DNA of 34,509 nucleotides from Kiritimatiellia bacterium (GTDB taxonomy: Bacteria > Verrucomicrobiota > Kiritimatiellia > SLAD01), in NCBI GenBank assembly GCA_007126515.1, contig SLBD01000039.1, positions 1-34,509 of the forward strand. The letters run 5' to 3'. How positions within the stretch are numbered: the stretch's first letter is position 1; every line of letters starts with the position of its first letter. Below, piece after piece: positions 29,715-33,612 of this stretch. The notes below the pieces were generated by a model. It saw only the letters and a program-made list of their open reading frames with translations. It was not told the origin of the DNA and ran no database searches. The position numbers and the translations under genes were made by a program.

Positions 29715-30065
29715 TTACAGCGTCCAGACGGTGACCAAAGTCACCACCGTCCCGACGATGGCACCAGTATAACACAGGTACGCGGCGGGCGTGTCGATTT
29801 GCTTGGCCAGCAAGAGGTCATGCAACGTAAAGCGAATCCGATGAGCCGCATGGAACAGGGTCAACGAAATCAGCATGAAAAGATAGATCCGCGCCAACGG
29901 ATGACGAACCAACTCCAACAAGGTCTCCGGCTCGACTGTCCACCAAGCTAAGGGCAGAGCGATGCCGAGCAACAGCACATGAATGGGGATGAAGAAGGAA
30001 GAAAAGACCCCCCCGGCTCCGAAAAAGGACCACCAGAAAGGATCGTTATTGCGTGATGATGACAT
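29715..30065 (-). CDS. frdD: Fumarate reductase membrane anchor D
   Basis: A 116-residue hydrophobic protein with three membrane segments. The opening, DPFWWSFFGAGGVFSSFFIPIHVLLLGIALPL, matches E. coli FrdD closely. With FrdC it anchors the catalytic dimer and forms the quinol site. AGGAGA lies upstream of ATG 30065. It ends the operon and is followed by repeat copy 3. Confidence 0.88.
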   Translation of the reverse strand: MSSSRNNDPFWWSFFGAGGVFSSFFIPIHVLLLGIALPLAWWTVEPETLLELVRHPLARIYLFMLISLTLFHAAHRIRFTLHDLLLAKQIDTPAAYLCYTGAIVGTVVTLVTVWTL

Positions 30066-30083
30066 GATGCGTCTCCTGAAAGA

Positions 30084-30506
30084 TTAGGCGGATAACAAAA
30101 CCCAGGCAATGAATGCGGAGCATCCCACCCACGCGGCAACATGCACGGCAATCAGTGCTGAGGCGGGCAGAACTTTGTCTTTAATACGAACAACCAAGGC
30201 CGTTGGGGCCAGGGTAAACCAGGTCAATGAATGATACACGGCAAACGCCAGGATGAATCCATGAAAGAGTATCATCCCAGGGCGTTGCAGCGTAGCAAGC
30301 CAAGTGTCCCACGCTTCACCCCCCTGGGAAAGGGCTCTCACAGTAAGGAGGAGGATGATCGCATACGCAGCTACAAATACGGCTGTTAGCTCCCGCAAAA
30401 TGTAGAGTAGATAAGATGGCTTCTTCATCCACCACGTCAGGGCCATGCTGGGGTGATAGGCCGATGGGCGGAATCGCTTGTAGGTTGGCGCTGTTTCTGT
30501 GTCCAT
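30084..30506 (-). CDS. frdC: Fumarate reductase membrane anchor C
   Basis: A 140-residue protein with three hydrophobic helices. TWWMKKPSYLLYILRELTAVFVAAYAI corresponds to TWW-K-P-Y-LRE-TAV of E. coli FrdC, and TWFTLAPTALVVRIKD to its second conserved segment. The heme-ligating histidines of heme-containing families are not evident, in line with the E. coli-type heme-free anchor. Start ATG 30506 has GGGAG upstream. It lies between frdB and frdD. Confidence 0.88.
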   Translation of the reverse strand: MDTETAPTYKRFRPSAYHPSMALTWWMKKPSYLLYILRELTAVFVAAYAIILLLTVRALSQGGEAWDTWLATLQRPGMILFHGFILAFAVYHSLTWFTLAPTALVVRIKDKVLPASALIAVHVAAWVGCSAFIAWVLLSA

Positions 30507-30535
30507 GGTTTCGTTCTCCCGTAAAATCTGCGCAC

Positions 30536-31315
30536 TCAGTCGATTTGTTTCACAATCCCGTCATTCTTCGGGGCGGTAGCTGCTTTGGGCCAAATCAACC
30601 GCTTCCAGTACTCCATCGCACCATCTGCCTTATATCGCTGAATGGCTCCTGTTGGATCCACATGTTTCGGGCAGGCGCGGCTGCACTCGCCAATCAGTGT
30701 GCAGTCGAATGCACCGCCATGGGCCAGTAAGGTGTCGTGTCGGGCAGCATTGCCAGAATCGCGATTGTCGTAATTGTACCGCTGAGCCAAGGCAATGGCG
30801 GCAGGGCCGACAAAGTCCTCGTTCAAGCCAACGACTGGGCAGGCTGAATAGCAAAGCATGCAGTTGATGCAAAGCGTGTATTGTTTAAAGGCCTTCAATT
30901 CCGCCGGTGTTTGACGATTTTCGCCATCGGTGATGTCGCGTTTTTCATCGGTGATCAGCCAAGGTTTGACACTTTTCAATTTGCCCATGAAGTCGTCCGT
31001 GTCGATGATCAAGTCGCGTAGCACTTTGAAGTTGGCCAGCGGTTCAATGCGGATCGGGCCGGGCTGGTATTCTTCGAGGAACGTGGCGCAGGTCAGCGCC
31101 GGTTCTCCATTCACCATCATGCCGCAACTGCCGCAGACACCCATGTGACAAGACCAGCGATAGGAGAGGCTCCCATCCAGATGATCTTTGATATAAATGA
31201 GCGCATCCAGAACACCCCATTTGGGTTCCAGAGGCACTTCGTATTCTTGCCAGAATGGATCCGGCTGCTTCTCTGGTAAATAGCGGCGAACCTGAATTTT
31301 AATTGTCTTGTCCAT
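30536..31315 (-). CDS. frdB: Fumarate reductase iron-sulfur subunit
   Basis: A 259-residue electron-transfer subunit. The [2Fe-2S] Cys are at 56, 61, 64 and 76 ([13 protein letters not shown] ... LTC). The [4Fe-4S] site is [12 protein letters not shown] and the [3Fe-4S] site [17 protein letters not shown]. It agrees with E. coli FrdB over nearly its whole length. It passes electrons from the quinol site to FrdA flavin. It starts at ATG 31315, 53 bases after the frdA stop. Confidence 0.93.
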
Positions 31316-31368
31316 GTGTCTTCCGTCGTTAGGTCATTATCCTGTTTGATCGTCTGCGATGATGCGTA

Positions 31369-33129
31369 TCACCCATACACGCGTTCTTTTGGCGGCCACT
31401 TCGTGATGGTTACGGGCGCATATTCGATGCGCGGCGTCGCTCCATATTCTGTCCTGTGTGCAAGTGAATGCTTCAGGTAATTTTCATCATCGCGTTGGGG
31501 GAAGTCGGTACGCTGATGGGCGCCTCGCGATTCAGTGCGAAGGAGGCCGGATTCGATGATGGCGCTGCTCAGCTCCAATAAGTTCCGCAATTCCATGGCT
31601 GCAGTTAATTCGGTGTTGAAGGTGTAACTGCTGTCCTGCAAAGGCAGTGCCTTGGCCCGCTCTTGCAGTTCCAGAACCGTTTCTTTGGCGGTTTGCAACG
31701 ACTTCTCGTCTCGATAGATCCCGGCCCCCGCCTCCATTTGGTGGTGCAGAGTTTCTCGAATGGAGGCAATGGAGTCTCCGCTCGTTTTTCCTTCGCCCGA
31801 TTTGCAAAAAGTTTCTTCAATCCGTTGTTCTTCGTCGCGTGCTAACGCGGCCAGCTTGGCGCTGAACGGCTTCGCTTGCTTCGCGTGCTCGGCCGCAGCC
31901 CGGCCGGCTCGGGCACCAAAGACCAACAGCTCGGTGAGGGAATTGGAGCCCAGCCGGTTGGCTCCGTTGATGCTGACGCAAGATGCCTCACCGGCAGCGT
32001 AGAGTCCTTCCACGCAGGTGGCGCCGTTGATGTCTACATCGATCCCGCCCATCGTGTAATGGACCACCGGCCGGACCGGGATGCATTGGGTCACAGGATC
32101 AATCTTTTCGTACTTCAAGCAAAGCTCCCGAACCATTGGCAATCGCTCGTTGATATGCTGCTCGCCGAGGTGACGGAGATCGAGATGTACGTAATCACCA
32201 TAGGGCCCCTTGATGGTGCGTCCCTTCTGGCGCTCCTGCTCGAAGGCTTGGGAAAGCCGGTCGCGAGGTCCGAGCTCCATCGTTCGATTCACAGGTTGTG
32301 GAGCAGGTTTGCCCAAGTTGTAGTCCTGCAAATATCGGTAATCTTCCTTGTTCAGCAGGAATCCGCCTTCTGCTCGGGTCGCCTCAGTGATCAGGATGCC
32401 GGTGAAGGGCAAGCCGGTTGGGTGATACTGAACAAACTCCATATCCTTCAGTGGCACGCCAGCCCGGTATGCCAGGGCGACGCCGTCGCCCGTCTTGATG
32501 TTGGCATTGGTAGTGAAGCGGAAGGCTTTGCCGAATCCGCCCGTGCAAAGAATCACACTGCGGGCCGCAATCGTATGCAGTCTTCCGGTCGCCATTTCGA
32601 GTGCCACTACGCCTTGGCACCGTCCGTCATCGACCAATAGCGTGGTCGCAAAGAATTCGTCATAGCGTCGGATCGGTTCGTATTTCAGAGAGGTTTGGAA
32701 CAGGGTATGGAGCATATGGAAGCCGGTCTTGTCGGCGGCGTACCAGGTACGTTTGTTTTTCATCCCACCAAAAGAGCGCACCGCAACGCTGCCGTCCGGT
32801 TCGCGGCTCCAGGGACAGCCCCAGTGCTCCATGCGTAGCAATTCTTTGGGCGCTTCATTGACAAAGGCCTCCACCGCATCCTGGTCGCAGAGCCAATCGC
32901 CACCCGAAATCGTGTCGTAAATGTGTTCGTCGATGGAATCATTGGATTTGATTACACCCGCCGAACCGCCTTCAGCTGAAACGGTGTGACTTCGCATCGG
33001 ATACACCTTCGAAACAACTCCTACTTTCAGTCGAGGATCTGTTTCGGCGACAGCGATCGCAGCCCGCAACCCAGCTCCGCCCCCTCCAACAATCAAGACA
33101 TCGTATTCATCCGGTCCGTATCGAGTCAT
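31369..33129 (-). CDS. frdA: Fumarate reductase flavoprotein subunit
   Basis: This 586-residue catalytic subunit reduces fumarate to succinate with electrons from quinol, at the cytoplasmic face. The FAD dinucleotide fold is VGGGGAGL (14-21). His48 in [10 protein letters not shown] is the site of covalent FAD. Glu53 corresponds to the E. coli FrdA Glu49 that separates FrdA from SdhA (Gln). Substrate residues are in [11 protein letters not shown] and [12 protein letters not shown], and [13 protein letters not shown] is also present. It is the first gene of frdABCD. No FNR-type palindrome was found upstream, though a 7-bp hairpin and a palindrome array lie within 400 bases. Confidence 0.94.
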
Positions 33130-33418
33130 TGTATCCGCCTTTTCTTTTCCACATAGATTATGCTCAGGTTGCCCGCTCAGAGATCCTCACTCGCGCCCAA
33201 CTGACGCGATCCGTGCGGCAACCCGTGTTTGACAGCCAATTGACTATCTTGGGCTGTGCTGCACACAGCCTCATTTGCATTAAGTGCTTACCCCAAGATG
33301 AAGCAAAAATCTAGTAAAAGCGGTCCAATTTAATCACTTTCGGACAATATAGTGGTTGCCATGAGGGCTTGATAGTGGCTGACGGGAAGAATCCCCGATA
33401 TTCAGCCTCCTTTTTGAG
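33130..33418. other. Intergenic region upstream of frdA
   Basis: No credible gene lies here. It should hold the frd promoter (minus strand). Visible structure is a 7-bp hairpin at 33252-33270 and an AT-rich stretch at about 33300-33350. I see no clear -35/-10 pair or FNR site. Open frames across the region are short and without codon or motif support. Together with the array that follows, the gap to the response-regulator start is 483 bases. Confidence 0.5.
33252..33270. promoter_or_regulatory. Inverted repeat in the frdA upstream region
   Basis: GGCTGTG (33252-33258) and CACAGCC (33264-33270) are perfect 7-bp arms around CTGCA. It lies 123 bases upstream of the frdA ATG and may be an operator or leader hairpin. 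No T tract follows on either strand. Confidence 0.4.
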
Positions 33419-33528
33419 TTTCCATTCAATGGAAGAAAATTTGCCCATTTTTCCACTCAATGGAAACTTTTTTGCCCGTTTTTCCATTCAATGGAAATTT
33501 TTCGGCTCGATTTTCCACTCAATGGAAA
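33419..33528. repeat. Array of four 17-bp palindromes with an exact 31-bp period
   Basis: The units start at 33419, 33450, 33481 and 33512, each 17 bp: TTTCCATTCAATGGAA(G), TTTCCACTCAATGGAAA, TTTCCATTCAATGGAAA, TTTCCACTCAATGGAAA. Units 1 and 3 have T, and 2 and 4 have C, at position 7. All three spacers are 14 bases, and the first two share TTTGCCC. The period is near three DNA turns. It lies between frdA and the response-regulator gene. The array reads as FHSMEx, then PLNGN, then SIQWK because 31 is 1 modulo 3, so the frame across it is a repeat artefact. Confidence 0.9.
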
Positions 33529-33612
33529 ATGCCGGATCCGCTGCTTTTTTGAAGCGTGACAAGAATCGGGCGGCGGATTAGGCTTATGCTGTTACTTGAG
33601 GGAGATGCACCG

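What the first reader, a model, noticed from the sequence alone, without database searches (positions are those of the whole stretch)
33419..33528. Four palindromes on an exact 31-bp period between frdA and a response regulator
The arms TTTCCATT/AATGGAAA are repeated four times at identical 31-base spacing with 14-base spacers. Even spacing near three helical turns would put all units on one face of DNA, as expected for cooperative protein binding or a multi-hairpin RNA. Neither reading fits a CRISPR. As far as I recall, similar arrays occur intergenically in PVC-type genomes and are often mis-called as proteins, but I know of no assigned function.
Basis: partly seen in the sequence, partly recalled or inferred. 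Interest (0 to 1): 0.75.

Follow-up and report, generated by a model that had tools for sequence, protein, structure and literature searches.

The report
Helically phased palindrome arrays in Kiritimatiellia
The four evenly spaced palindromes are one of about 35 such arrays in this genome and belong to an apparently undescribed, class-wide family of DNA sites that sit on one face of the double helix, most likely as docking arrays for an unidentified DNA-binding protein.

Summary
It is not local. The genome holds 115 such sites in about 35 arrays, almost all at 31 bp. Of 97 genomes sampled (window's own included), 40 carry 31-bp pairs of TTTCCA-N5-TGGAAA (up to 804), with zero for the reversed control. 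All 257 genomes sampled from other classes of the phylum have none. Named hits are Kiritimatiellae and related PVC bins. The arms are fixed; the centre differs by lineage, even between congeners. Distances follow multiples of about 10.3-10.5 bp (22, 31, 42, 53, 62-64), and A/T-GC phasing occurs only between sites. Arrays ignore gene orientation, and in some genomes lie inside genes (trpF, a nucleotidyltransferase) in different reading frames. This points to DNA-level binding by a cooperative dimeric helix-turn-helix protein, probably architectural or multi-site rather than a promoter switch. The protein is not identified. Lrp/AsnC is the best lead: its known operators sit two or three turns apart, and all 40 array-bearing genomes have a member, though so do most without arrays. 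CRISPR, terminator and REP/RAYT readings fit poorly.

The parts
33419..33435 (+). site 1, TTTCCATTCAATGGAAG
33436..33449 (.). 14-base spacer 1, AAAATTTGCCCATT (A/T edges, G+C core)
   Evidence: spacer profile
33450..33466 (+). site 2, TTTCCACTCAATGGAAA
33467..33480 (.). 14-base spacer 2, CTTTTTTGCCCGTT (CTTTTT head recurs in other arrays of this genome)
33481..33497 (+). site 3, TTTCCATTCAATGGAAA
33498..33511 (.). 14-base spacer 3, TTTTTCGGCTCGAT
33512..33528 (+). site 4, TTTCCACTCAATGGAAA
31369..33129 (-). frdA, fumarate reductase flavoprotein (context, not part of the array)
   Evidence: Pfam PF00890 and PF02910
33613..33969 (+). receiver-only response regulator (context, not part of the array)
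   Evidence: Pfam PF00072

Best explanation
Each 17-bp palindrome is a binding site for a dimeric helix-turn-helix protein (two 6-bp half-sites, centres one turn apart). Sites are repeated two, three or more whole turns apart so that dimers line up on one face, touch each other, and bend or wrap the DNA between them. Arrays are scattered over the chromosome, outside and, in some lineages, inside genes, without regard to transcription, so the role is more likely architectural (nucleoprotein nodes, bridging or looping) or that of a general multi-site regulator than an operator of frdA or of the response regulator. Shown: sites, spacing, phasing, taxonomic range, gene-independence. Inferred: that a protein binds, cooperativity, wrapping, function. 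Best protein lead: the class's Lrp/AsnC-family protein (about 25% likely).
For: Genome-wide recurrence with zero reversed-pattern controls. Helical phasing: adjacent distances other than 29-33 give R=0.87-0.89 at 10.3-10.5 bp; without the 22-bp class too, 20 distances still give R=0.65, p=2e-4 at 10.5; an independent sample not selected for spacing, 75 distances in two loosely arrayed genomes, gives R=0.30, p=0.001. A/T at spacer edges and G+C in the middle between sites but not outside them (spacer positions 2-3 are 87/70% A/T inside, 47/49% outside). Arrays ignore flanking gene orientation (107/36/26 co-directional/divergent/convergent against 105/32/32 expected; array direction also random). 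In-gene arrays at the same place in TrpF of several families keep the DNA arms and spacing while reading frame and peptide differ. Lrp operators are known to be aligned on one face with centre-to-centre spacing of two or three helical turns (PMC2995911) and wrap DNA round an octamer (PMC10201364). All 40 array-bearing genomes have PF01037; the 13 that lack it have no arrays.
Against: No binding protein has been shown. PF01037 is also present in 44 array-free genomes and its absence is clumped in few families, so the association is weak. Position turns over quickly: array-adjacent genes share only 14 reciprocal pairs across organisms against 2-10 (mean 6) in controls, which is unusual for functional sites. 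Spacers in different arrays of one genome resemble each other more than column-shuffled spacers (61 of 88 against 8 in G000), which suggests some copying, although that shuffle mixes the two array orientations.
Confidence: 0.6

Rival explanations
1. A REP/BIME- or Rickettsia-palindromic-element-like dispersed element that spreads as DNA (for example by a Y1/RAYT transposase) and is tolerated in intergenic space and in permissive protein loops; binding, if any, is secondary.
For: Lineage-specific centres shared genome-wide and differing between congeners (G000 YTCAA, G002 ATCGT); similar spacers in different arrays; rapid positional turnover; in-frame additions to proteins, for example the nucleotidyltransferase of L251; Y1 transposases common in the class.
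Against: Array count does not follow Y1_Tnp count (Spearman 0.15, p=0.15); G024 has 29 pairs and G053 has 8 with no Y1_Tnp found. In G066 and G084 centres and spacers nearly all differ while arms and spacing persist. Transposition does not predict whole-turn distances of 22, 31, 42 and 53 bp. No 3'-end bias as for REPs. The two-site TrpF array adds no net length in the alignment.
Confidence: 0.2
2. Operators of a classical regulator controlling the adjacent genes (here frdABCD and/or the response regulator).
For: Here the array lies between divergent genes. Arrays recur at a pheS-like gene (five loci) and in or beside trpF/trpB in several families, a possible amino-acid-related core regulon.
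Against: No promoter bias across 169 arrays, many arrays inside genes in G084 or between convergent genes, and functions of neighbouring genes are mixed.
Confidence: 0.15
3. A multi-hairpin RNA (processing, stability or termination element).
For: The transcript of either strand folds better than shuffles (z -4.9 and -5.8).
Against: Any palindrome array folds, so this does not discriminate. Orientation is independent of genes, and DNA-turn phasing has no reason in RNA.
Confidence: 0.05

Closest known systems
Lrp/AsnC-family operator arrays (for example Sulfolobales BarR sites)
   Same: Short palindromic sites aligned on one DNA face, two or three helical turns apart, with octamer wrapping (PMC2995911, PMC10201364).
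   Different: Known examples are a few promoter-proximal operators; these are dozens to hundreds of arrays with no promoter bias, and the binding protein is unproven.
REP/BIME elements
   Same: Hundreds of dispersed short palindromes in clusters, mostly extragenic (own knowledge).
   Different: Here no 3'-end bias, no link to Y1 transposase number, helical spacing, invariant arms with variable centres.
Rickettsia palindromic elements
   Same: Palindromic repeats that enter protein-coding genes in frame (PMC10969869).
   Different: RPEs are about 150-bp copies encoding a conserved peptide; these are 17-bp sites read in all three frames, with no conserved peptide.
Chromosome-organising site families (parS, matS, Noc or SlmA sites; own knowledge)
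   Same: Dispersed palindromes bound by sequence-specific proteins.
   Different: Those are mostly single sites with defined ori/ter distribution; no protein is known here and chromosomal distribution was not tested.

Membership tests
Lrp/AsnC operator array | Short palindromic sites on one helical face, two or three turns apart | tested here: met
   22- and 31-bp base spacings; literature rule
Lrp/AsnC operator array | An Lrp/AsnC protein in every array-bearing genome | tested here: met
   40 of 40 have PF01037, but 44 of 57 array-free genomes also do
Lrp/AsnC operator array | The protein binds the sites | not testable with these tools
   needs EMSA, DAP-seq or ChIP
Lrp/AsnC operator array | Located in control regions of target genes | tested here: not met
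   no promoter bias; in-gene arrays
REP/BIME | Association with RAYT/Y1 transposase | tested here: not met
   Spearman 0.15; array genomes G024 and G053 without Y1_Tnp
REP/BIME | Bias to 3' ends, avoidance of divergent regions | tested here: not met
   divergent 36 observed, 32 expected
Rickettsia palindromic element | Conserved unit and conserved encoded peptide | tested here: not met
   frames and peptides differ at the same TrpF position
CRISPR array | Spacers of about 30 bp or more, identical repeats, cas genes nearby | tested here: not met
   14-bp spacers, variable centres; cas genes were not searched for
Known RNA family | Rfam match at the array | tested here: not met
   only three tRNAs in the window

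The most novel reading that the evidence does not exclude
A class-specific chromosome-architecture system: a sequence-specific protein nucleates phased nucleoprotein arrays at dozens to hundreds of chromosomal points, under enough selection to be kept inside housekeeping genes, and shared with phages of these hosts.
Probability: 0.35. Interest if true: 0.88.

Novelty: new variant of a known kind. Interest (0 to 1): 0.75.

Why it matters
No paper in the searched library that I could find describes these arrays, yet they number tens to hundreds per genome in much of a bacterial class and are easily translated as false proteins. They give a ready-made DNA bait for an unknown site-specific protein. 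The centre differing genome-wide between congeners would make co-evolution of a DNA-binding protein with its sites directly testable, and the in-gene arrays suggest DNA-level pressure acting within protein-coding sequence.

Tried and rejected
CRISPR (spacers too short and irregular). RNA folding (uninformative for palindromes). REP/RAYT by Y1_Tnp count. A first orthology test found no shared array position between G000 and G002, but its filter dropped genes whose call ran into an array and so missed pheS; replace it. Lrp recognition-helix comparison showed, by eye, no residue separating array-bearing from array-free genomes or tracking the centre; three sequences (G058, G071, G044) were misextracted there and ignored. 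Lone arrays in array-poor genomes did not point to one adjacent regulator gene.

Full report
OBSERVATION. Four palindromes TTTCCA-N5-TGGAA(A/G) start at 33419, 33450, 33481 and 33512, exactly 31 bp apart. They are the only such sites in the window; 200 dinucleotide shuffles give 0.055 sites per window and no pairs. They lie between divergent frdA and a receiver-only response regulator (Pfam), 289 and 84 bp from the two start codons.

GENOME-WIDE. The same genome has 115 forward sites (118 reverse matches) at up to two mismatches and none for the reversed control. In 31 fetched arrays, 82 of 90 adjacent spacings are 31 bp, the rest 29, 30, 32 and one 62.

RANGE. 40 of 97 genomes (window's own included) have 31-bp pairs, up to 804 in G016, with no control hits. 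In a phylum-wide sample 42 of 388 genomes have them: all 42 are among 131 members of the window's class, none among 257 of other classes (my count of rows). Three contigs of the virus collection also carry arrays, one near a terminase-like gene (terminase by eye).

ANATOMY. Arms TTTCCA/TGGAAA are constant; the centre differs by lineage: YTCAA in G000, ATCGT in its congener G002, ATCAT in G071, YGCTA in G054, RGGCT-like in G016, nearly free in G084. Half-site centres are 11 bp apart, the geometry of an HTH dimer (general knowledge). Base spacings are 31 (or 32 in G091) and 22 bp. Distances outside 29-33 follow 10.3-10.5-bp multiples (R 0.87-0.89); dropping the 22-bp class too leaves R=0.65, p=2e-4. 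In a sample not selected for spacing, from two genomes with looser arrays, R=0.30, p=0.001. Spacers are A/T-rich at the edges and G+C-rich in the middle only between sites, as expected for phased DNA bending (inference).

PLACE. 169 arrays fall in co-directional, divergent and convergent gaps as intergenic length predicts, and array direction is unrelated to genes. In G084, 16 of 27 arrays lie inside long genes, among them homologues of trpF, trpC, aroB and cysS (names from sequence by eye, except trpF: Pfam PF00697). TrpF carries an array, in places decayed, at the same position in six species of one genus, in G032, in G016 and in the JAHJJH bin, with two or three sites and in different reading frames, while other TrpF copies have none. 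A pheS-like gene (by eye) has an array at its start in five loci, including G000 and G002, with different centres. Overall, array-adjacent genes share 14 cross-organism reciprocal pairs against 2-10 in controls: most positions turn over, a few persist.

MECHANISM. Fixed arms, free or lineage-tuned centres, whole-turn spacing, bend-like spacers and indifference to transcription and reading frame fit cooperative protein binding to DNA. Lrp/AsnC proteins are the best match: sites two or three turns apart on one face (PMC2995911), wrapping on octamers (PMC10201364). Every array-bearing genome sampled has a PF01037 protein, and the 13 without it have no arrays, but 44 array-free genomes have it as well, so this is a lead, not an identification.

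RIVALS. A copying element explains shared centres and similar spacers in one genome but not whole-turn distances, free centres in G084, or independence from Y1 transposases. A local operator role for frdABCD or the regulator cannot be excluded here but is not the general rule. RNA hairpins are possible from any palindrome but do not explain phasing.

Noticed in passing
window 33375-33581: The array is open in several frames and my gene caller predicted a false protein (VADGKNPRYSASFLSFHSME...); the 31-bp period cycles through all three frames, often without stops.
   Followed up: yes
L297 2785-2947, L298 3428-3506, L299 10588-10654: Virus-collection contigs carry arrays, L297 with six sites at 31,31,22,31,31 bp upstream of a terminase-like gene.
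   Followed up: partly
L269 5423-5470; L287-L293; L133 932-1010: Arrays at the same position inside trpF in several families, read in different frames.
   Followed up: yes
L251 608-748 and L105 1293-1454: Long arrays inside a nucleotidyltransferase gene after the NGD motif in two different genomes, apparently adding tens of residues.
   Followed up: partly
L113 1912-2051 and L149 4733-4842: Array at the same residue range of a TilS-like protein (by eye) in two bins.
   Followed up: no
L124 5513-5591: Array inside a MutY-like gene (HhH-GPD), where the FPGIGN site coincides with the likely helix-hairpin-helix motif.
   Followed up: no
window 29715-33129: Complete frdABCD-type fumarate reductase operon (Pfam FAD_binding_2, Fer2_3, Fumarate_red_C, Fumarate_red_D).
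   Followed up: partly
G084 contig 1: 31-bp pairs look unevenly spread over this single-contig genome (clusters at about 3.37-3.87 Mb to 0.05 Mb and 1.15-1.51 Mb); not tested against oriC.
   Followed up: no
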